A DNA stretch of 64,000 nucleotides from an uncultured bacterium (lineage in GTDB: Bacteria > Elusimicrobiota > Elusimicrobia > Elusimicrobiales > Elusimicrobiaceae). The notes under the pieces were generated by a model. It ran no database searches, had not been told where the DNA came from, and saw nothing but the letters and a program-made list of their open reading frames with translations. Made by a program: the position numbers and the translations under genes. The stretch is from positions 62,001 to 126,000 of the forward strand of contig CASFTM010000002.1 in assembly GCA_949297775.1 (NCBI GenBank), read 5' to 3'. Positions 52,993 to 64,000 of the stretch are shown one piece after another (position 1 is the first letter of the stretch; each line of letters begins with the position of its first letter).

Positions 52993-53065
52993 ACTATCTA
53001 TACAGCCGGCTTAAGGCGCACCAACTGCGGCCCGCACCGGGAGTTTTTTGTTCGTCGGAGTGTTT

Positions 53066-55000
53066 ATGAAAAAAACTGCTGGAAAAATTATTCTGTTTAT
53101 CGTCTGTTTGGCGCTGGTTATATTTTTACTTCTTCCCTTTTTACAGCCTTCCGACAGGCAGCCCGCTGCCAACAGCGCTGTCAAAACGGCGGAGCCCCAA
53201 ATCTTTACCTCTAACCCGCTGACGGAATTAGTCAACCGCATTGCGCGCTTTTTCTCACGCAAAAAAAGTTCTTCTTCCAAAACGCTGACTTCCCAGCAAG
53301 AAAAAGAACATTTCGGCTCCCCCATCCCGGAGGAAGAACTTTATGCCGATGCACGCGCCGCTTCCCTTAATTCCATTTCCACGGAAGCCGCTCCAGCCGC
53401 CGGCTCCGGCCCGCGGACGGGCTTTGGGGATGCCTCTTTACAAACCGATGAGGGAGAATGGGTGCTGATCCGCCAAACCATACCCGAAGACGGAATAAGG
53501 GGAATGCACGAAGTCAGCACCAAAGATAATCCTTATGACCGCTACGTCCGCCAGGAACGTGCCGCCCGGTTCACGCCGACCGCCGCGCCAGCCTCGCCCG
53601 AAGTGCCGGACTCTAAATGGGCCCGCCTGTTTACTCCCATTAAACGGCTGTTTGGTTTTTCGGCCCCGCAGGCGGCAGCTTCCAGAACGGCGGGTGGAAA
53701 CCGCGCAGCAAGCGGCAGCCGGCTGGCCTCTTCAGAGGGGATAGGTTCTTCCGGCAGCAAAAGTGCGTCTTCTTTTGGCGGAGGGGAATGGGATATGCCA
53801 CAGCCGGGTGCACTCAACCCGCAGGACGGGCAGGCTCCCGCCGGGCAAACCTCTTTGCTGGCATATTTGGACCCTAATGCTGTATTGGATGAAGTAGCGG
53901 ATTCGTTAGCCGATGCACAGTACCCCAATCCGCAAAGCGCACGAGATAAAAAAGCCAAAGAAGAGTACCGCCAACAGCGCCGGGAAGAAGCCCAGCAGTA
54001 CTTTCTTTCCCGCGCACAGGAACGTTTAAACCGTTTAGCCGCCGGACAAGAGGCTGAAGACGAACTGAAAAACATGCTCTCTTTCTCTTGTACCAATGAA
54101 GCCCCCCGCCCGGTAAAAAGCTCCGTTTGCTCCGTGGGCGAAAATCCAAACGCCCGCCCGGCCAGCAAGCAAGCCTTGGAAGCGGCCAAACAAAAAAACG
54201 CCCAGTTGTTTTATAAAAAAACCCATTTGACCATGCCCCCGGCGCCAATTACACCCATTATTGGGCGGGCTACCGATATCCCCCAGGACGCGGTAGACCC
54301 GGAGGTGGACTCGGAAGAATACACCAAAACCATGGAAATTTACCAGTTTATGCTCCAGCAGGAGGATTGCTCTTCCAAGCCGTGTTATTGGGTAGCCAAT
54401 TCCCGCCAGCTGAATACGGAGTTGTCCGACTCGGTAGAAGCGGCTGGAGCCGTGTTTAAAGGGGATCCCTTGGATAAATACAGCCAAGTAGCCAAACAAT
54501 TTGCTCAATACAAAATGGACCAACTGCCGGCAGACGCTTCGGAAGAGGACAAGAAAGCCGCACAAGCGCAGGCCGACCAATTTGCCCCATCTTACATCTT
54601 ATACACAGCCGATAATTTAAAATCCCTCCAGGAACAAAACCGTGAGGCTATGCTGGAACGCAATATGCAAGGCGGCGCCGCATTATATGCACTGACTGCT
54701 CCTATCGGCAAACAACTCAGCGAAGACTTGGATTCCACCGTGTTTTTCTACGGACGGGATAATTCCTTCATTGACGCAGACCAAAACCCAACCTTTGCAG
54801 AGCGTTCAGCCGTGCTGGCGGATACGCTGGCAGACCAGATCCAATTTTTCCAGCAAGTGGGGCAAGAACTGCGCCAAAAAACCTCGCGCGAAATCGTCCA
54901 AAAACAAACTCGGGCAGAGGTGGAAGAACTCCAAAAAAAATCTAAAAAAGAACGATCCCCTTTTGATAAAAAGCGCGCCGCGGCCGGTACGCGCCGCTAA
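53066..55000 (+). CDS. Unknown membrane-anchored, low-complexity protein
   Basis: A 644-aa protein not recognised. The start ATG 53066 has GGAG 5 nt upstream; a TTG at 53048 is in frame. One N-terminal transmembrane helix (GKIILFIVCLALVIFLLLPFL) is followed by ~280 residues rich in Ser, Ala, Pro and Gly, then a charged helical region. Four cysteines in two groups (FSCTNE...SSVC and EDCSSKPC) suggest disulfides outside the cytoplasm. The C-terminus is highly charged (RAEVEELQKKSKKE). No homologous family can be named; possibly an envelope-spanning linker protein. Confidence 0.72.
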   Translation: MKKTAGKIILFIVCLALVIFLLLPFLQPSDRQPAANSAVKTAEPQIFTSNPLTELVNRIARFFSRKKSSSSKTLTSQQEKEHFGSPIPEEELYADARAASLNSISTEAAPAAGSGPRTGFGDASLQTDEGEWVLIRQTIPEDGIRGMHEVSTKDNPYDRYVRQERAARFTPTAAPASPEVPDSKWARLFTPIKRLFGFSAPQAAASRTAGGNRAASGSRLASSEGIGSSGSKSASSFGGGEWDMPQPGALNPQDGQAPAGQTSLLAYLDPNAVLDEVADSLADAQYPNPQSARDKKAKEEYRQQRREEAQQYFLSRAQERLNRLAAGQEAEDELKNMLSFSCTNEAPRPVKSSVCSVGENPNARPASKQALEAAKQKNAQLFYKKTHLTMPPAPITPIIGRATDIPQDAVDPEVDSEEYTKTMEIYQFMLQQEDCSSKPCYWVANSRQLNTELSDSVEAAGAVFKGDPLDKYSQVAKQFAQYKMDQLPADASEEDKKAAQAQADQFAPSYILYTADNLKSLQEQNREAMLERNMQGGAALYALTAPIGKQLSEDLDSTVFFYGRDNSFIDADQNPTFAERSAVLADTLADQIQFFQQVGQELRQKTSREIVQKQTRAEVEELQKKSKKERSPFDKKRAAAGTRR

Positions 55001-55011
55001 TCAAAAGCAAG

Positions 55012-55048
55012 TTTAAAAATGCCCCGGGAATCTCCGGGGCATTTTTAA
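55012..55048 (+). terminator. Terminator
   Basis: TTTAAAAATGCCCCGG pairs with CCGGGGCATTTTTAAA, after the 53066 gene. Confidence 0.88.
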
Positions 55049-55157
55049 ACTGTTTTTCGGGTTTCTTTTCTATCCAAAAACGGGTATAATTTCTATATCT
55101 GCTCCGCGCGCGCCCGTGCGTACGGAGCGACCCCAACACAACAAGGAGCCCGGGTTT

Positions 55158-55715
55158 ATGAAAAAACTGCTCAGCCTTTTATTTGTTTCTTCCCTATTGG
55201 CGGCGGCGGGATGCCAGTCCCAACCTAAAGAATCGCCATACAACCGCACCGATGCCAAACAAGATTATGAACGTCTGCTGCGCACCCATATTTTTGCCGC
55301 GTGTGAAAACATCGGCAAACCGTACGCCACCTATTCGCTGGCTACGCTTAATAAAGGGCCGGACGAAAACACCCCCTACTATAAAGTTACTTTCTTTAAC
55401 GGGCCGTGCAAAGGCAAAGTATTGTGGACCAAAGACGTACTGTTAAAAACGGCCCCCGTTGGAGCAGAGCCTTTGCCTAAGGGGACAATACTACTTCGCA
55501 ATTTTTGGAATCCCAAAGATCCTTATGACCAAGAAAAAACAGACCGTTGGAATATCGGCGTCGTCAGCAGTTCCGAACGGCTGGACAAAGGCATCGTGGA
55601 CTTGGAATTTCCCCGCGACCGCAACGATTTTATGCCCGCACGGGAAGGGGCATATTTGCATAATGTACGTTATATTGTTAAACCGGAAGTAAAAGACATC
55701 CGCACTTTTCTGTAA
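55158..55715 (+). CDS. Unknown lipoprotein
   Basis: A 185-aa lipoprotein with MKKLLSLLFVSSLLAAAGC and lipobox AAGC; the start ATG 55158 follows AAGGAG. The mature part has two more cysteines (FAACENIG, NGPCKGK) and a beta-rich pattern (GTILLRNFWNP, KGIVDLEFPRDRNDF). No family recognised. First gene of the run lipoprotein, YjbH-like barrel, HAMP, TolC, patatin, TPR. Confidence 0.75.
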   Translation: MKKLLSLLFVSSLLAAAGCQSQPKESPYNRTDAKQDYERLLRTHIFAACENIGKPYATYSLATLNKGPDENTPYYKVTFFNGPCKGKVLWTKDVLLKTAPVGAEPLPKGTILLRNFWNPKDPYDQEKTDRWNIGVVSSSERLDKGIVDLEFPRDRNDFMPAREGAYLHNVRYIVKPEVKDIRTFL

Positions 55716-55738
55716 TTAGAGAAAAAGGGAGACCGACT

Positions 55739-56470
55739 ATGAATATAAAACACTGGATTGCTGGTTTTGTTTGCATACTCTGTCCGTTTACGCTGCAGGC
55801 CGGGCAAGGGGATCCTATCAGCCTGGAAACAATGATTTTGGACGTTCCCACCGCCGAAGTACTGGACCGTTACCAAGCCTCTTTTTTAACCCGTGCCTAT
55901 GACCACGGAGCCATGATGGAAAGCATTGATTTTGGCGTTTTTCCGCGCATTAATATCGGCATAAGCGTAGCGGCGCATGCGTTACTGGGGTCTTCGGACG
56001 ATGTGCGGGTATTAAATCCGGATTTTCAATTAAAGTTTAAAGTATACGACGGAAGCCTCTACCTGCCGGCTATTGCCATCGGATACGATGGGCGCCGATA
56101 TGGTTACGGATATAACAAAGACCATGTGTATGCAGATACCAAGGACTACTTAGATGACCGCAAAGGCGGGTATATCTCCTTTTCGCGGGAAGTTATTGTG
56201 CCCGGGCTCAATGCCACGGCCGGGCTGAACTTGTCGGACTTTGACTGGAGCGAAATCTTTTGGTTCATGGGAATGTACTATAACTGGGCGGACAAAATCG
56301 GCCTGATGGCGGAATGGGACAATATCCGCAACACGCGCGATTCCCGTTTAAACCTGGGGATGCGCTTTTACTTACACCCCTCTTTGGCCTTGGATGCCGC
56401 CGTGCGCCGCATTGGGCGCGGGGATGAAAGCGAACGCATTTTGCAAATCCGCTACGTAACCAATTTTTAA
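55739..56470 (+). CDS. YjbH-like outer-membrane beta-barrel protein
   Basis: A 243-aa exported protein (signal MNIKHWIAGFVCILCPFTLQA). Strand-rich and aromatic, with IDFGVFPRINIGISVAAH and IGLMAEWDNIRNTRDSRLNLGMRFYLHP, typical of YjbH/exopolysaccharide-type barrels, and a terminal Phe (YVTNF). YjbH proteins accompany polysaccharide or envelope systems. 23 nt after the lipoprotein gene. Confidence 0.75.
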   Translation: MNIKHWIAGFVCILCPFTLQAGQGDPISLETMILDVPTAEVLDRYQASFLTRAYDHGAMMESIDFGVFPRINIGISVAAHALLGSSDDVRVLNPDFQLKFKVYDGSLYLPAIAIGYDGRRYGYGYNKDHVYADTKDYLDDRKGGYISFSREVIVPGLNATAGLNLSDFDWSEIFWFMGMYYNWADKIGLMAEWDNIRNTRDSRLNLGMRFYLHPSLALDAAVRRIGRGDESERILQIRYVTNF

Positions 56471-56479
56471 GAGGATGTT

Positions 56480-56941
56480 ATGAAACAAGAAACCGACTCG
56501 CAAGCCCAGCCGCAGTTTAACAGAAGGACGATTTTTATCAAAAAAAATCTCCAAATCCGTTATATGCTGCTTATGATTATGAGTGTACTGTGCGGGCTGG
56601 CCATTATGACGTTTGAATTAACCGCCACCTTAAATGATTTGTTTGATAAATACCCTGTCTTGGTACAGCCGATATATGATCAGTTCCTTCCGGTGGCGGC
56701 GTCGTTCTTTTATAAAATTGCCATCTACCTGCTGTTTGTAGTGATTATTTCGGCCATTTTATCACACAAAATGGCCGGCCCAGTATATCGCTTTGAACAA
56801 ACTTGCAAAGCTATCGCCAAAGGAGATTTTTCCAAACGGATTCATCTGCGCAAAGGCGACCAGCTGATGGAATTGCAAGACGAATTTAATAAAATGATGG
56901 ACCGCATAGAAAAGGAAATCAATAAAAACAAACCATCATAA
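56480..56941 (+). CDS. Two-helix membrane protein with a HAMP domain and no output domain
   Basis: A 153-aa protein: transmembrane helix ~28-48 (YMLLMIMSVLCGLAIMTF), short periplasmic loop, second helix ~78-98 (IAIYLLFVVIISAILSHKM), then a HAMP domain (AGPVYRFEQTCKAIAKGDFSKRIHL region to DEFNKMMDRIEKEI). Kinase, cyclase or methyl-accepting output is absent and the protein ends after HAMP. Such orphan HAMP proteins may act as adaptors that signal to a separate partner. 9 nt after the barrel gene. Confidence 0.82.
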   Translation: MKQETDSQAQPQFNRRTIFIKKNLQIRYMLLMIMSVLCGLAIMTFELTATLNDLFDKYPVLVQPIYDQFLPVAASFFYKIAIYLLFVVIISAILSHKMAGPVYRFEQTCKAIAKGDFSKRIHLRKGDQLMELQDEFNKMMDRIEKEINKNKPS

Positions 56942-56951
56942 CGGGGGGTGT

Positions 56952-58256
56952 ATGAAAAGAATCACAACGCTTCTGTTGGCGTTTTGGCTGTGCACGCCAG
57001 TTGCGTTTGCACAAAAAGAATACGGACTAAAATTCTCCAGTTTAATCAATGACAATCTAACGCTTGAAAATGCTATCCGGCTGGGGTTGGAAAATAGTTC
57101 CGATTTTTTAACGGCTAAACAAGACATTATTATCGCCGAGCAAAAAGTAAGCGAAGCGAAATTCCGCTATTTGCCGCAATTTTCGTTGCAAGGAACTGCA
57201 ACTTTGTATGATTTGGATTACCCCATGGTCCTGCCGGATTCGGTAGCCAACCGGTTTCTGCCTGGGAACGGTTTATATGGGGAAAAAGACCAATTCTATG
57301 GGGTTGGAATTACGGCCACGCAATATCTTTATACGGGCGGACGCATCAGCAGCACGCTTAAAATGGCCCGTGCAAATCTGAAACAAGTGCAAAGCCGTTA
57401 TGAAATTGTCAAAAACCAAGTGGTGCTCAACATAAAAAAGGCCTTTACCGAATTACTTTACGCCCAGCACAATGCCAAACTAACGCAGGAAGTACTCAGC
57501 CTGGCGGAAAAATGGTATGCTAATCCCACCGGAGATGTATGGACAAAAATCCGCATCCGCGCCCTAATGGCGGATTTGCGCAGCTCCCGCAACCAAGCCG
57601 AAAGCGAACTAAAAAAAGCGCAGCTGGCTATGCTGGTCAATTTAAACAAAGAGCTTAATGCCCGCATTACGATTAAAGGCGATTTTTCGCCTGTCAAAAC
57701 GGAATGGGACCTGCCGCATATGAGCCTGTGGGCTATGGAATTCCGCCCGGAATTAAAATCCGCCATCTACGCGTTGGAAGCGGACAATATCGCCATAGAC
57801 CTGGCCCTTTCCAAACGCTACCCGGATATCATCTTAAACGCTTCGTACGAAAAGCTGGGCGAAGACAGCCTGGATGACGTAAACAAACAAGTTTCACTGG
57901 CGGTGCGCTTACCTATTCCGTACAATTTATCTGAACAAGTAACCGAGAAAAAAGCCGGGCAGCAAAAAAGCGCCTTGCGCCGCGCCGCGATTGAAGACAA
58001 AATCCGCGTGCAAGTGGCGGAAAGTTTTGAGAATATGCTCTTTTGGCAAAAAGAAGTGTTGGACCGTCAAGCCGCATACGACGATTTAAATCAGCTTCTT
58101 TCCCAAGCCTCTAAAAACCAACCCAAAACGGGCACTGCCCCTTTGGAAGCACTCCAGGATTACCTAAAATCCGCCCAAGGATATTTCCAGGCCGTACGCA
58201 ACAACCATACGGCTAAGGCCGAATTGGAATGGGCCATCGGCCAGGATTTAGAATGA
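56952..58256 (+). CDS. TolC-family outer-membrane channel
   Basis: A 434-aa OEP protein with a signal peptide (ITTLLLAFWLCTPVAFAQ). Two OEP repeats of long helices: LTLENAIRLGLENSSDFLTAKQDI and the second half EFRPELKSAIYALEADNIAIDLALSKRYPD, with strands such as YYGVGITATQYLYTGG between. Usually part of efflux or type I secretion; no membrane-fusion or ABC/RND partner is in the operon. It overlaps the patatin gene by 4 nt (ATGA). Confidence 0.9.
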   Translation: MKRITTLLLAFWLCTPVAFAQKEYGLKFSSLINDNLTLENAIRLGLENSSDFLTAKQDIIIAEQKVSEAKFRYLPQFSLQGTATLYDLDYPMVLPDSVANRFLPGNGLYGEKDQFYGVGITATQYLYTGGRISSTLKMARANLKQVQSRYEIVKNQVVLNIKKAFTELLYAQHNAKLTQEVLSLAEKWYANPTGDVWTKIRIRALMADLRSSRNQAESELKKAQLAMLVNLNKELNARITIKGDFSPVKTEWDLPHMSLWAMEFRPELKSAIYALEADNIAIDLALSKRYPDIILNASYEKLGEDSLDDVNKQVSLAVRLPIPYNLSEQVTEKKAGQQKSALRRAAIEDKIRVQVAESFENMLFWQKEVLDRQAAYDDLNQLLSQASKNQPKTGTAPLEALQDYLKSAQGYFQAVRNNHTAKAELEWAIGQDLE

Positions 58257-59221
58257 CCGCCCGTGGATGCCGCACCGTTTGCGGCTGGCTGGCGGTTTTG
58301 CTTATAGGGCTTTCCCCCTATGCGGGAGCAATTCCCGTCCAAACAGACGACCAAATCCTGCGCGATTTTATGTGGGGACGCTTTACTTCCATTCCCAAAG
58401 AAGACCGCCCGCAGATTGGCCTGGCATTATCCGCCGGAGGCGTACGCGGGTTTGCCCACGTAGGCGTGTTAGAAGTGCTGGATAACGCCGGCGTGCCAAT
58501 TGACCAAGTGGCCGGAACGTCCATGGGTTCCGTGGTGGGATCGCTATATGCAGCGGGGCTGCCTACCGAAAAGCTTTGGGAAATCAGCAGACATATGACG
58601 ATGGATCAAATCACTCCGGATTTTAACGTGATGGGCTTGTTTCGGTTTTTGTTCGCCCAAAAATTGCCTTCTTCCGCAAACTTGGTTAATTTCTTTCACG
58701 AACAAATCGGCGATATGCGGTTTGAAGATTTAAAAATCCCGTTTACCTGCTCGGCGATGGATGTAAAAACGGGCGAGAGGGTGGTTTTTAATTCCGGTCC
58801 GCTGGCGATTGCCGTACGGGCCAGTATGAACATCCCCGGAGTATTTGAGCCCGTGCAATACCGCCACCGTGCGCTGGTGGACGGCGCAGTGGTAGATTAC
58901 CTGCCGGTGGAAACCGTCCGACTAATGGGGGCGGATTATGTAATCGCTTCGGTTACGCCGCCGGATTTTGCCTCCACTACGCCGCAGTCCGTTGCAGCCT
59001 ATCTGCTGCGCGTAGGGGACGTACGCGGCGCGGCTATGATTGAAGAAGCCGCCCAAAAAGCAAATTTCGTCATCACTAACCGCGTGTTAGATACCGGCAC
59101 CTTGGAACTGGATAAACTGCACAAAGCCGGCGAAGTGGGTATTAGAGAAGCAAACCGCCATTTAGGAGAATTGCAGGAAGACATCCTGCTTTTTACATTG
59201 CCTTATGTATTTAAACCGTAA
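58253..59221 (+). CDS. Exported patatin-like phospholipase (RssA/PlpD type)
   Basis: A 322-aa patatin. The start is ATG 58253, overlapping the tolC stop; the N-terminus CGWLAVLLIGLSPYAGA is a signal peptide. Catalytic dyad: GLALSAGGVRGFAHVGVLEV (oxyanion GGxRG), nucleophile GTSMGSVVGS, and Asp in LVDGAVVDYLP. Members hydrolyse membrane lipids. An exported patatin directly behind TolC suggests envelope lipid remodelling or secretion (inference). Confidence 0.9.
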   Translation: MTARGCRTVCGWLAVLLIGLSPYAGAIPVQTDDQILRDFMWGRFTSIPKEDRPQIGLALSAGGVRGFAHVGVLEVLDNAGVPIDQVAGTSMGSVVGSLYAAGLPTEKLWEISRHMTMDQITPDFNVMGLFRFLFAQKLPSSANLVNFFHEQIGDMRFEDLKIPFTCSAMDVKTGERVVFNSGPLAIAVRASMNIPGVFEPVQYRHRALVDGAVVDYLPVETVRLMGADYVIASVTPPDFASTTPQSVAAYLLRVGDVRGAAMIEEAAQKANFVITNRVLDTGTLELDKLHKAGEVGIREANRHLGELQEDILLFTLPYVFKP

Positions 59222-60185
59222 ATTTTTGATAGGTATGCTGGGTATGCTGTTTTTGGGTGGATGTACCGCCACTCAAACAGGCATTTTAGGGCTGGCCCCT
59301 ATGGGCGACCGAAAGGAATACGTCCAAGCACGCGATTTATATTCCGCCGGCGATTATACCCAGGCTATAGAACAGCTGTCGGACTACATTTATAAAACTA
59401 AAAACGTCAAACGCCGCGAAGCCCGTGCTTATCGTTTGTTGGGAATGAGCTACGAACAGCTGGGACAATTAAGCAAAGCATTGGAAGTATATTTGGAAGC
59501 GTTAGAGTTTCACCCCAAAGATATTCCGTTGCTGCTGGCGGCGGCGGATTTATACCAACGAACGGACCTGGTAGACCGCTCTATTGAGCTCTACGAACAA
59601 GTGTTAGCCCAAGAACCCAATAATTTGGAAGCGCTCTCCGGCCAAGGCACTAACTACAGCAAAATGGGGTTTTATTCCCAAGCCCGGTTTTTTTATGACA
59701 AGTTTTTTGAATTAAACCCCGCAGCCGAGCCGCTTTACCGCGCCCGCTATGCGGAAACTTTTCTGCGCCAGCGCAATTATAAAGATGCCTTCATCAATAT
59801 CACGATGGCCCTAGCCGGGGATAGTTCATCGCCGGATTTTTGGCTCCTTAGCGCCAAAGCATCCCGCGGGCTGGGCCGCCCGCAAGACGCCTTGGCTGAT
59901 TTGGAAGCTGCCCTCCTGCTGGCCCCGGGCCGCCGGGATTTGCTGGCCAACAAAGCGCTTTGGCTCTACGAAGCCGGGCGATATAAAGACTCCATCCGCA
60001 CCGCCCAAAAAATTCTGGAGCAAGACCCCAAAAACCAACTGGCTTTGCTGATAATGGCTATGGATGAATATTATTTAGGCCGCAAAAAAGACAGCCGCCG
60101 CCATATGCAAGCTGTCTTAAAAGGGGACCCGGATTCTTTTACCGAACGGGTAGCGGAAAAACTGGCAAAACAATTGCATTGGTAA
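59205..60185 (+). CDS. TPR-repeat lipoprotein
   Basis: A 326-aa lipoprotein (IGMLGMLFLGGCTAT, lipobox LGGC). About seven tetratricopeptide repeats from residue ~40 to the end, e.g. AYRLLGMSYEQLGQLSKALEV, LLLAAADLYQRTDLVDRSIE and LALLIMAMDEYYLGRKKDSRR. TPR lipoproteins serve as scaffolds in envelope complexes. Overlaps the patatin gene by 17 nt; last gene of this operon. Confidence 0.88.
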   Translation: MYLNRKFLIGMLGMLFLGGCTATQTGILGLAPMGDRKEYVQARDLYSAGDYTQAIEQLSDYIYKTKNVKRREARAYRLLGMSYEQLGQLSKALEVYLEALEFHPKDIPLLLAAADLYQRTDLVDRSIELYEQVLAQEPNNLEALSGQGTNYSKMGFYSQARFFYDKFFELNPAAEPLYRARYAETFLRQRNYKDAFINITMALAGDSSSPDFWLLSAKASRGLGRPQDALADLEAALLLAPGRRDLLANKALWLYEAGRYKDSIRTAQKILEQDPKNQLALLIMAMDEYYLGRKKDSRRHMQAVLKGDPDSFTERVAEKLAKQLHW

Positions 60186-60186
60186 C

Positions 60187-60225
60187 GCAAACCGCCCCGC
60201 CGGCATCAGCAGGCGGGGCGGTTTG
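60187..60225. terminator. Bidirectional terminator
   Basis: GCAAACCGCCCCGCC pairs with GGCGGGGCGGTTTGC around a 9-10-base loop, between the TPR gene and convergent pilin copy 3. No T run, so it acts by stem strength. Confidence 0.8.
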
Positions 60226-60236
60226 CAACAGTACTT

Positions 60237-60725
60237 TTAAGATATTAAACAGCCGCCGTCGGTAAAATTGCCTTTGCAAAGCGATTTACAAAAAGCTTCA
60301 TCTGCGGGCTTGCTCCCGACCATACAGTACATTCCTGCCGGCATGGTTGTATTTTCATCTACTTCCAAATCGTCCACAAACAAAACAATACTGTAGGAGT
60401 AGGTATCCGATTCCCGGGTAGCCATCGGGCCAAACCAACTGAGGCCAAATTCAAAATTTTTAGTCCGATAGTCGCCTGCCGAATCCGGTTTCAAGACATC
60501 TTCCCAAATAAGCGCTACATCATCCGGATTCCCAACATTAAAAGTTCCCTTTCCACCCAAGCTGTACACCGTAATATTTTGCCCCGCCTTACGCAGGAGA
60601 GCATATACTTCAGTCAAACGGCTTTTTTCCACGGCCAGCTGATATTTGGGCAACGCCACCGCCGCCAAAATACCGATAATCAGCACGACGACCAATAATT
60701 CTATCAAAGTAAAACCCTTTTTCAT
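60237..60725 (-). CDS. Orphan type IV pilin-like protein (copy 3)
   Basis: A 162-aa prepilin with a very short leader MKKG before [18 protein letters not shown], then [17 protein letters not shown]. The globular part differs from copies 1 and 2 but ends with a similar Cys-rich tail (YCMVGS ... [16 protein letters not shown]). Unlike the others it has a normal ribosome-binding site (AAGGAG 8 nt before ATG) and a transcribed leader of about 70 nt. Confidence 0.92.
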
Positions 60726-61037: not shown

Positions 61038-62687
61038 TTACGGTTTCGGTACAAACGGTTTACGGTCCGCTTTCTCATCGCTGGGCAAGATTTCAATTTC
61101 GTCCACCAACAAAGAGGGCGCCACCACCGAATAAGTACGGGATTCGGGGTCCTGCAAGAAGGAAACTTCCCCGTCCTCCCCGGCCGCCAAAATATCGCGC
61201 AGCGAGCGGGTACTCAATTCGCTGATTTTTAGCCCGAACACGGGTTCGCGCCGTCCGTCCTGCGTATAGATGCGTTCCGCCAAATTTACCACATTTTCCG
61301 CGCCCGTTTGTCCGGAAGGAAATTCCTTTAAAATATAGCAATAGTCCAACTCCAATTCCCGGCAGCGGGCCAGCAGTCTTGCTTCCATTTCCTGGGCCGT
61401 CAGCGGCGTTTTGGCTTGTACAAACACATTCGTCAACGCTTCGCGCGGCTGTGTAAAGTGGTTCATCCGGGCATGCCCGTTGCTAGAGCTGCCTTGGCTG
61501 GCGGGGCGGCGCGAAAGCGGCAGCTGGTGCAGTTTCCCACCGGATACCACCGTCAAATCCTGCGCTTGCACGCCTTCATCATCTACCGGTTTAAAACCGG
61601 CTAACGGGATGCCTTTATACTCACGCAACAGCGGTTTATCATACACCTCCACGGCATTGCTCATCACGCGCATACCCGTTTTATCGCGGAAAGAGCCCGC
61701 CGTTGGGTCGTTTTCCCGTTTGGAAGACAACAAAGGTTTCACATTGCGCACATTTTTTACAAGCAGCCGGTTAATAAACTCCGCCGAGGCCGCCGGACTA
61801 AGCAGTACGGGCCCCAAATACGGCTCGGGTTTTTGGGCTTCATACAGCCGCTGTGCATCCTGCAGCAGCCGGGCCGCCTGCTCTTGCACATACTGTTTTT
61901 GGTTCTGCCAATCTTGGGGTAAATAAATTTCCCGCCACAGTTCATCCCGATACCCCGCTTGGTTGCGCATCTGGGCGGACAAGATGGCATACACGGACGG
62001 CAAGGAATACTGATAAAAACCGCCGTCGCTGTTTAGGTAGTAGTAATCTTTCTGCATTACACACAAAGCGGCGCTGGAATCTTCCAAATAAGGGACGTCC
62101 TTCCCCAGGGCTGAAAGCGCTTGCACCCACTCTTGCATTTGCTTCCGCGGCAAAGCGGGAAAGGGAGGAATTTCTTCCACAAAAGAGGCTTGTGGCGCCC
62201 GTGTGAAATCGGGCAAATTGTCCGTGATATTTTTTTGGCGTTTATACGCTTGCTTCTTTTCATACATTTCGGCAGCGTCCAAATAGCTGTTGTCGGTCAT
62301 CGTCCACAACGCGCGGCGAATACCCCAATAGCTTTTGGCAATGGCATATTGGCTGGAAGGGGTGTAGCGGGTGGCTTCTTCGGTAAAGCCCATACTGTCA
62401 TTTTTCGGCGTTCCGGCGGATAACACGGCATACCCCAGCAAATGATGATACGGCGTTGAAGGGCCGGCCTCTAATTGCCCAAAGGAAGCCCGCTCACACA
62501 ACACATTTACATCTTCCAGCTGGTAGGCCAAATAATAGGGCTTGGGGCCATTTTGCACGCGCAATTTCTTTAAAGAACGGTCCATTTCATCCTTCATCGC
62601 GCGGAAATACACATTATCCGGCAGTTGGGCGGCGCCCAACGCCAAATGACTGCAGACTAATAGACAAAACAGGAAAATTTTTTTCAT
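61038..62687 (-). CDS. Exported TldE/PmbA-like protein without metal motif
   Basis: A 549-aa protein with an N-terminal signal peptide (MKKIFLFCLLVCSHLALGAA). The C-terminal part follows the TldD/PmbA fold (GMRVMSNAVEVYDKPLLREYKGIPLAGFKPVDDEG, then SNGHARMNHFTQP), but the HExxxH metal site of TldD is absent, as in the inactive TldE/PmbA partner. TldD/TldE form a cytosolic protease in E. coli; here the signal peptide points to export. The start overlaps the upstream TldD-like gene by 4 nt (ATGA), so the two are made together. Confidence 0.82.
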   Translation of the reverse strand: MKKIFLFCLLVCSHLALGAAQLPDNVYFRAMKDEMDRSLKKLRVQNGPKPYYLAYQLEDVNVLCERASFGQLEAGPSTPYHHLLGYAVLSAGTPKNDSMGFTEEATRYTPSSQYAIAKSYWGIRRALWTMTDNSYLDAAEMYEKKQAYKRQKNITDNLPDFTRAPQASFVEEIPPFPALPRKQMQEWVQALSALGKDVPYLEDSSAALCVMQKDYYYLNSDGGFYQYSLPSVYAILSAQMRNQAGYRDELWREIYLPQDWQNQKQYVQEQAARLLQDAQRLYEAQKPEPYLGPVLLSPAASAEFINRLLVKNVRNVKPLLSSKRENDPTAGSFRDKTGMRVMSNAVEVYDKPLLREYKGIPLAGFKPVDDEGVQAQDLTVVSGGKLHQLPLSRRPASQGSSSNGHARMNHFTQPREALTNVFVQAKTPLTAQEMEARLLARCRELELDYCYILKEFPSGQTGAENVVNLAERIYTQDGRREPVFGLKISELSTRSLRDILAAGEDGEVSFLQDPESRTYSVVAPSLLVDEIEILPSDEKADRKPFVPKP

Positions 62688-64000
62688 TTCTTTCCTCCCT
62701 TTTTATCAGCCGAAGGCGGTGGCAGCACCGGGGGTTTATAACTGCTTTTGTATGTTTTTTCAATTTCCAGCGCTTCCAGCAACACACTGGGGGCAATAGC
62801 GGATACCGGCACCCAGCCGGATTCGGCGCCGCACGACCCGTTGAATACGGCATAATCATCCGCGGCGGCGAGCACTTTGTTAAAGCTGACCAGCGGCGTC
62901 CCCACCATATCGGCACCGCGTACGGCCTCTTTGCGTCCGTCCGGATAGATGCGGTATACCAGCGTCGGCTCCAGTTTAAACGCCTGCGGCGCATAGGTGC
63001 TGGTTTGGGTAAATCCGCCGGATAAATCTTCAATAATAAAGCCATACGGCTTTCCCTGGCGTTTAATTTCAGCCAACAGCATTTCTTCCAGTTCGGCATA
63101 GGGAACCGTTTCGGACGCAATCACCCGCGTATTTCCCATACGCGCCACCGCCCGGCTGCCTTGTTCGGCCCGTCCGTGCCCGTTGGACTGGGGGAACCCC
63201 TTAATCGGGCTGCTGCTCATCAAAAAGTTTTTAAGCACTCCGTTTTCCACCAATGTAACGGGGCGGGCTTTTACGCCTTCGTCATCGTATTCGTAAAACC
63301 CGCGCAGAGGTATGCCGTCAAAATAGGCCAAGGTGGCGTCGTCCACAATAGTCAAAATGGGCGATACGACAGGCTGGCCTACTTTATCGGTAAACGTTTT
63401 ACCAAAAGCGTCGTCTTTCTGGCGGTGCCCTTCCACCCGGTGGCCTAAAACTTCGTGCACAAATACAGCCATCGCGCGGTTTTTCAAAATGGCGGGAGCG
63501 GTCATCGGTTCGGCTTCGGGCGCTTGGGAAAGGGTCTCCAGCTCCGCAAGCGATTTTTGCACCGCCGCCAACAAAGCCTCTTCCGTGGGGAGCTCGCTGT
63601 CTTTGAGGACATCAAACTCTTCGCTGCGGACCAGCTGGAGCCCGTCCGCCGTTTGCCCCGCCAACATATAGCTTAGCCTAGCGTAAGCAAAAGGGGTTTT
63701 TAAGCGGGTGCCCACCGAGTCCACAAAATAGCGGGAGCCCTGCGAAATTGTGAACGAAAAAGAACTGTCCAGCACAAACGCCTTCCCTTGGACCAGCTGG
63801 GAAGCTTTCAGCAACAGGGCCTTAATACGGTCTTGATTAAAGGCCAGAGGCGCTTCTTCGCGGCAATAAGAAGATTTAGGAGGAAACACAAAATCGTTGG
63901 AATCATCGGAACGTTTGGCGGCGTTTACGGCGTCCACCTGTACGCGGCTGAAAGCCGCCTGGGCATGTTCGGCCGCATTTTGGGTGGCGCGCCACACCGC
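62684..64000 (-). CDS. TldD-like metalloprotease, 5' end outside window
   Basis: 437 codons from an internal GTG; the frame stays open to base 64000, so the N-terminus lies outside. The active site VHEVLGHRVEGH (HExxxH, ~63420-63460) is intact; GIPLRGFYEYDDEGVKARPVTLVENGVLKNFLMSS and GFPQSNGHGRAEQGS are strong TldD segments. TldD is the catalytic half of TldD/TldE, which digests unfolded peptides. Whether this copy is exported like its partner depends on the missing N-terminus. Confidence 0.88.
   Translation of the reverse strand, partial: AVWRATQNAAEHAQAAFSRVQVDAVNAAKRSDDSNDFVFPPKSSYCREEAPLAFNQDRIKALLLKASQLVQGKAFVLDSSFSFTISQGSRYFVDSVGTRLKTPFAYARLSYMLAGQTADGLQLVRSEEFDVLKDSELPTEEALLAAVQKSLAELETLSQAPEAEPMTAPAILKNRAMAVFVHEVLGHRVEGHRQKDDAFGKTFTDKVGQPVVSPILTIVDDATLAYFDGIPLRGFYEYDDEGVKARPVTLVENGVLKNFLMSSSPIKGFPQSNGHGRAEQGSRAVARMGNTRVIASETVPYAELEEMLLAEIKRQGKPYGFIIEDLSGGFTQTSTYAPQAFKLEPTLVYRIYPDGRKEAVRGADMVGTPLVSFNKVLAAADDYAVFNGSCGAESGWVPVSAIAPSVLLEALEIEKTYKSSYKPPVLPPPSADKKGGKK

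What the first reader, a model, noticed from the sequence alone, without database searches (positions are those of the whole stretch)
55158..60185. Envelope operon combining YjbH-like barrel, orphan HAMP protein, TolC, exported patatin and TPR lipoprotein
Six genes follow with overlaps or short gaps (23, 9 and 10 nt, then 4- and 17-nt overlaps). TolC has no fusion protein or pump beside it; the patatin has a signal peptide; the HAMP protein has no output domain; two genes encode lipoproteins. I know of no named system with this set. Inference: a lipid-remodelling or secretion complex across the envelope with the HAMP protein transmitting a signal.
Basis: inference. Interest (0 to 1): 0.55.

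Follow-up and report, generated by a model that had tools for sequence, protein, structure and literature searches.

The report
TolC–periplasmic patatin–TPR gene trio
The six neighbouring envelope genes are real, but only three of them, an outer-membrane channel, an exported lipid-cutting enzyme and a repeat-protein scaffold, form an old unit kept across most of a bacterial phylum, probably to tend the outer-membrane lipids.

Summary
All six genes are present with the stated spacings, with an inverted repeat at each end. They are the remains of two older phylum-wide neighbourhoods: HEAT–barrel–accA–aldolase–PFK, and argG–argH–TolC–patatin–TPR–lysA–dapF–dapA. These merged in part of class Elusimicrobia with the HAMP gene at the junction; PFK was later lost. 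The first lipoprotein joined only in Elusimicrobiaceae. The real unit is the trio TolC–patatin–TPR: seen in 20 of 23 sampled families of the phylum, at none of 73 loci from other phyla, and deleted as a block in two sister genomes. The patatin is a stand-alone relative of the PlpD patatin domain, without its Omp85 barrel. PlpD's domain is reported to be periplasmic and linked to outer-membrane lipid homeostasis. MlaE is common in this phylum, MlaA and PldA are rare. Best reading: a periplasmic phospholipase for outer-membrane lipid upkeep, held or served by a pump-less TolC and a TPR adaptor (complex not shown). 'YjbH-like' is weak: the barrel is modelled with 12 strands and is a phylum-core protein. 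The lipoprotein is modelled with a tandem-Tudor-like fold.

The parts
55010..55051 (+). Terminator-like inverted repeat upstream of the operon
   Evidence: 19-pair stem with T tail on +, also scored on -; a pattern match only
55158..55715 (+). A: lipoprotein, 185 aa, modelled with a tandem SH3/Tudor-like fold; restricted to part of Elusimicrobiaceae
   Evidence: Cys19 invariant in 19 of 19; no Pfam family; AlphaFold2 pLDDT 86; best matches are tandem Tudor/Agenet domains, Z up to 9.5, rmsd 3.1-3.6 over 114-117 residues, only modestly above the tool's usual background; 50 of 198 phylum genomes, 4 of 65 genera, all f1
55739..56470 (+). B: 12-stranded outer-membrane barrel (model), phylum-core protein
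   Evidence: model pLDDT 82, 12 strands; nearest folds FapF Z 17.8, KdgM 16.9, NanC 15.1; 183 of 198 phylum genomes, nearly always one copy
56480..56941 (+). C: membrane protein (two hydrophobic stretches by eye) with a C-terminal HAMP domain and no output domain
   Evidence: HAMP 27 bits, cut-off 25; 151 of 198 phylum genomes, several copies in many; invariant R15, K21, Q25 in the N-terminal segment of 22 rows
56952..58256 (+). D: TolC-family outer-membrane channel without adjacent fusion protein or pump
   Evidence: OEP 115.9 bits; profile matches TolC structures at E 1e-10
58253..59221 (+). E: exported patatin, stand-alone homologue of the PlpD patatin domain
   Evidence: Patatin 109.7 bits; PlpD E 6.7e-37 single sequence, 2.4e-61 profile; GTSMG serine motif and DGA; signal peptide by eye, no lipobox by pattern
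59205..60185 (+). F: exported TPR protein, lipoprotein in this species
   Evidence: TPR_2, five stretches, E 1.4e-25; lipobox MYLNRKFLIGMLGMLFLGGC by eye
60190..60225 (+). GC-rich inverted repeat downstream of the operon
   Evidence: read by eye; not reported by the scan

Best explanation
The functional unit is the trio D-E-F. Shown: it is a phylum-wide, co-inherited gene trio of a TolC-family channel without neighbouring pump, an exported patatin related to PlpD and an exported TPR protein. Inferred: E works in the periplasm as a phospholipase A that cleaves or clears glycerophospholipids at the outer membrane; F is a TPR adaptor that holds E near the membrane; D is the outer-membrane docking site or the outlet for the products. 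Together they would do in three separate proteins what PL-Omp85 proteins (PlpD) do in one chain. B is an independent core outer-membrane barrel and C an orphan HAMP membrane protein; both became neighbours of the trio when two housekeeping clusters merged. A is a later, family-level addition.
For: Trio: 85 of 98 E matches over 180 bits have D directly upstream and F directly downstream (at least six genomes are represented twice). Of the 13 others, 10 are other patatins (two short, eight longer than 600 aa, two of these one gene), one is cut by a contig end and two are ORF-calling artefacts. Trio seen in 20 of the 23 sampled families; f4 and f17 lack it and f20 has an E match whose neighbours I did not fetch. 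164 of 198 phylum genomes match the E profile at 1e-20, a few of them only by another patatin or a pseudogene. Co-loss: in two sister genomes (genus g8) C is followed after 0 and 3 nt by dapF, D-E-F being gone. In one reduced genome E is a pseudogene with ten stops and no D or F is recognised in the 1819 bp between argH and lysA. Of 20 genomes without an intact trio-type E, none has a D match over 100 bits (highest 85; one has a 78-bit fragment), against 5 of 5 with E (106 to 331 bits). Function: PlpD is the closest solved relative of E. PlpD's patatin domain is reported to be exclusively periplasmic, with altered membrane lipids in the mutant (PMC11116518: abstract and passages). DG[GA] in 85 of 85 trio E proteins, G[TVI]S[MVIL]G in 80 of 85, the other five reading GTSAG or ATSMG with the serine kept. 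MlaE 180 of 198, MlaA 2 of 198, PldA 8 of 198; LpxC in the own genome.
Against: No activity, localisation or interaction was measured. The rarity of MlaA and PldA may be one event shared by descent. Seven of the eight PldA-bearing genomes also keep E; the eighth (G197) is one of the two that lost the trio, but its sister G068 has neither. The trio's neighbours are arginine and lysine/DAP synthesis genes, not lipid genes. MlaE is present, so lipid transport is not wholly missing. The D threshold is narrow: one true trio TolC (G061) scores only 106 and 99 bits in two pieces. Complex prediction was not possible with the tools.
Confidence: 0.47

Rival explanations
1. Secretion: the patatin is an exoenzyme or effector that enters the periplasm by Sec and leaves through the dedicated TolC channel, with the TPR protein as chaperone.
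For: E has a signal peptide by eye and sits next to an outer-membrane channel without a pump. [quoted passage not shown]
Against: The trio is kept among housekeeping genes in most families of the phylum, from groundwater, fen and animal-gut record titles alike, unlike a typical effector. PlpD's domain is now reported to stay in the periplasm. TolC export normally needs an energised partner (recalled), and none is nearby.
Confidence: 0.15
2. No joint function: the six genes are only residents of conserved housekeeping clusters, transcribed together but acting separately; D may serve pumps encoded elsewhere.
For: B and D-E-F come from different clusters, and neighbours such as PFK and dapF come and go.
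Against: D-E-F is lost as a block, and no full-strength D was found in 20 genomes lacking E. The other four TolC loci of the own genome have their own partners. Likely true for B, C and A, unlikely for D-E-F.
Confidence: 0.22
3. HAMP-controlled envelope response: C senses membrane state and controls the patatin/TolC unit, perhaps with the receiver-only regulator encoded upstream of B in relatives.
For: C is directly upstream of D in loci of families f1, f2, f7 and f8, and a receiver-domain gene (Response_reg) precedes B in many of f2, f7 and f8.
Against: C is not upstream of D in 14 of 14 loci from other families. C homologues sit in other contexts, some near genes that look like panB/panC by eye. 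No receiver gene was seen there in the f1 loci. C has no kinase domain.
Confidence: 0.1

Closest known systems
PlpD and other PL-Omp85 (type Vd) proteins
   Same: Patatin domain of related sequence with a signal peptide; periplasmic and outer-membrane-associated in PlpD (PMC11116518)
   Different: E has no POTRA or Omp85 barrel and a shorter lid region; a separate TolC channel and TPR protein are encoded beside it
TolC tripartite efflux and type I secretion systems
   Same: D is a TolC-family outer-membrane factor
   Different: No membrane fusion protein or inner-membrane pump adjacent, unlike the four other TolC loci of the same genome
Negativicutes mlaEFD-tolC-tamB operon
   Same: A TolC gene placed with lipid-homeostasis genes (PMC10665443, passages)
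   Different: Mla genes are elsewhere here (own genome contig C8); the partner is a patatin
PldA (OMPLA) and MlaY
   Same: Phospholipases credited with outer-membrane lipid upkeep (PMC10665443 passage)
   Different: PldA is itself a barrel; MlaY is known to me only from citations and recall, its paper was not held
Archaeal Af1503
   Same: Membrane protein ending in HAMP without input or output domain (PMC3585426 passage)
   Different: No sequence comparison was made; C carries its own conserved N-terminal segment
Barrels FapF, KdgM, NanC
   Same: Overall barrel fold of the model of B
   Different: 9-11% identity; a shared barrel shows no function

Membership tests
PL-Omp85 / type Vd (PlpD) | Patatin domain with Ser-Asp dyad motifs | tested here: met
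PL-Omp85 / type Vd (PlpD) | POTRA and 16-stranded Omp85 barrel in the same chain | tested here: not met
   E is 322 aa; Pfam finds the patatin domain only
PL-Omp85 / type Vd (PlpD) | Long lid region between serine motif and next core motif | tested here: not met
   68-69 residues in 73 of 74 measured E proteins (one 61; 7 of 81 not measurable) against 82-97 in 39 of 42 measured long proteins (simple pattern); that the missing part is the lid is inferred
TolC tripartite efflux / type I secretion | Outer-membrane factor | tested here: met
   OEP 115.9 bits
TolC tripartite efflux / type I secretion | Adjacent fusion protein and inner-membrane pump | tested here: not met
   None in the operon and none recognised by eye in the clusters listed; a distant partner cannot be excluded
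YjbH (PF06082) | Score above Pfam cut-off | tested here: not met
   13.9 bits against 24 for the window protein; 5 of 20 relatives match weakly
Outer-membrane beta-barrel proteins | Closed barrel, signal peptide, C-terminal aromatic residue | tested here: met
   12 strands in the model; C-terminal Phe in 18 of 20 rows; signal peptide by eye
HAMP proteins | HAMP domain above cut-off | tested here: met
   27 bits against 25
Tandem Tudor/Agenet fold (protein A) | Two SH3-like barrels | tested here: inconclusive
   Z up to 9.5 on a predicted model; no sequence family
Mla pathway | MlaA outer-membrane component in the phylum | tested here: not met
   2 of 198 genomes; MlaE 180 of 198

The most novel reading that the evidence does not exclude
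Elusimicrobiota use a trans-envelope lipid-homeostasis machine not described in the papers I could search: a pump-less TolC trimer docks a periplasmic PlpD-related patatin through a TPR adaptor and lets fatty acids or lysophospholipids out, standing in for MlaA and PldA across most of a phylum and giving TolC a role without any pump.
Probability: 0.2. Interest if true: 0.75.

Novelty: new variant of a known kind. Interest (0 to 1): 0.5.

Why it matters
A TolC gene tied to a phospholipase rather than a pump across most of a phylum would widen what TolC channels are thought to do. It also gives a testable candidate for how a large diderm lineage with hardly any MlaA or PldA keeps its outer membrane in order. 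The history also shows how a seemingly new operon can arise when metabolic genes drop out between envelope genes.

Tried and rejected
Rejected: one dedicated six-protein system (two ancestral clusters); YjbH membership; F as a conserved lipoprotein; a phylum lacking Mla altogether (MlaE in 180 of 198); the short lid of E as a special sign (short patatins of other phyla share it). This is a sample, not proof of absence. tblastn of E against plasmids gave patatins below 60% identity in 133 records; their neighbourhoods were not inspected. A viral-contig scan gave three patatin relatives and no trio, one of them at a contig end. PldA-versus-E replacement within the phylum: no clear pattern. Literature: 'Elusimicrobia' + 'patatin' gave one paper, unrelated by its title; 'Elusimicrobi' + TolC + outer membrane + phospholip gave none; a wider patatin/TolC search listed 19 papers, none of which looks like the trio from title and start of abstract. 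Only openly licensed papers are searchable. In the 50 rows shown for the B fold no entry is named YjbH; that absence says nothing.

Full report
Observation. The six ORFs, their strand, spacing and overlaps are as described, between an upstream terminator-like repeat and a downstream GC-rich inverted repeat seen by eye. Pfam supports HAMP, TolC, patatin and TPR; the first protein has no family and the second only a sub-threshold YjbH match.

The organism. The window is contig C2 62001-126000 of a 1.69 Mb assembly. Named contigs carrying the same trio are labelled Elusimicrobia or Elusimicrobiaceae. One relative has a single 1,643,562-base contig, a size I recall for Elusimicrobium minutum; the tools did not name it.

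Conservation in the genus. The HAMP gene is in 41 of 41 genus genomes searched. In all 20 genus loci fetched with wide flanks the order is A-B-C-D-E-F.

Beyond the genus. I fetched 60 loci around best or further HAMP matches, 20 of them from the genus. In families f2, f7 and f8 the order is dnaE–receiver–B–(aldolase)–PFK–C–D–E–F–dapF–dapA, with one or another gene missing or unrecognised in some loci (PFK confirmed by Pfam, receiver). Within f1, one locus each of genera g4, g5 and g6 still has PFK between B and C, while the loci of g1, g2 and g3 do not. A is present in g1-g4; the g2, g3 and g4 loci carry genes that look like malic enzyme and fumarase upstream (by eye). One g2 genome has also lost B (L063). 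Fourteen of the 60 loci hold HAMP paralogues in other settings (L064, L069, L070, L076, L077, L079-L086, L089).

Two older clusters. B was searched across the phylum: 183 of 198 genomes, nearly always one copy. At 26 loci outside the merged group (L110-L135), B is directly followed by accA in 25, in many with a HEAT-repeat gene before and an aldolase and/or PFK after (accA, HEAT and aldolase confirmed by Pfam on examples). The E profile matches 164 of 198 genomes at 1e-20, a few of them only by another patatin or a pseudogene. At 14 loci from other families (L136-L149), D-E-F directly follows argH in 12 and argG in 2, and is often followed by lysA, dapF, dapA and dapB (argH and lysA confirmed by Pfam on examples, the rest by eye and similarity). 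Of 14 further loci (L254-L267), 12 have argH and one argG before D, one (f5) neither; seven are from genomes of 0.9-1.3 Mb. So the window's operon is what is left after two neighbourhoods merged with C between them.

The trio as a unit. Of 98 E matches over 180 bits, 85 have D upstream and F downstream (at least six genomes twice). Ten clear exceptions are other patatins, eight of them longer than 600 aa; the other three are a contig end and two ORF-calling artefacts. Two sister genomes keep B, PFK and C and continue with dapF after 0 and 3 nt, D-E-F being gone; TPR-profile hits elsewhere in those two stretches are in other ORFs, two of them of 839 and 1141 aa and one cut by the end of the stretch. 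In one reduced genome the patatin is a pseudogene and D and F are not recognised. A profile of D found no match over 100 bits in 20 genomes lacking an intact trio-type E (best 85 bits) and found one in 5 of 5 with E, the weakest at 106 bits. At 73 patatin loci from other phyla no D or F neighbour was recognised beside the patatin; some of these loci end near the patatin.

What E is. Its nearest solved relative is the patatin domain of PlpD. Hanson et al. 2024 (PMC11116518; abstract and passages seen) report that this domain is exclusively periplasmic, that the protein is a dimer, that a lid at residues 89-126 touches the barrel, and that membrane lipids change in the mutant. E keeps the catalytic motifs but has no barrel. 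Its spacing between the serine motif and the next core motif is 68-69 residues in 73 of 74 measured (one 61; 7 of 81 not measurable), against 82-97 in 39 of 42 measured long relatives (three outliers, 10 of 52 not measurable). Short patatins of other phyla have 59-63 (14 of 20 measured), so E simply resembles stand-alone patatins here.

Genome context. The own genome has LpxC. Across the phylum MlaE is common (180 of 198), MlaA rare (2 of 198), PldA rare (8 of 198). In Negativicutes a TolC gene follows mlaEFD (PMC10665443, passages), and that paper's discussion suggests that phyla with LPS but without Mla may rely on phospholipases. Here MlaE is present, so this is an analogy, and seven of eight PldA-bearing genomes also have E. 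The four other TolC loci of the own genome have fusion proteins and/or RND pumps next to them.

Other members. B is modelled as a 12-stranded barrel (pLDDT 82), nearest to FapF and KdgM/NanC, folds that would fit a small channel without showing it. A is modelled with pLDDT 86; its best matches are tandem Tudor and Agenet domains, its lipobox cysteine is invariant in 19 of 19, and it is confined to four genera of one family. C has an invariant N-terminal Arg/Lys/Gln set; relatives outside family f1 and the g5 genome have an extra C-terminal tail.

Verdict. Observation confirmed; interpretation partly supported. The trio is the part worth attention. Mechanism is inferred; confidence a little under one half.

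Noticed in passing
window 61038-63997, minus strand: Two adjacent genes with the PmbA/TldD C-terminal domain; the first begins with a signal-peptide-like sequence, unusual for a normally cytoplasmic protease pair (recalled). Both are kept beside the operon in 17 of 20 genus loci.
   Followed up: partly
window 55158-55715: A bacterial lipoprotein modelled with a tandem Tudor/Agenet-like fold, a fold known mainly from eukaryotic histone readers (recalled).
   Followed up: partly
L110-L135 (B loci): A single-copy barrel gene beside accA, often with aldolase and PFK, across the phylum, retained in some genomes of about 0.6 Mb.
   Followed up: partly
L079, L082, L085, L089: Orphan HAMP paralogues beside genes that look like panB/panC in other families, identified from sequence by eye.
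   Followed up: no
window 53048-55000: Large 650-aa ORF upstream with no Pfam family, with a relative in 20 of 20 genus loci.
   Followed up: no
window 60237-60725, minus strand: Pilin-like protein with the N-terminal methylation motif.
   Followed up: no
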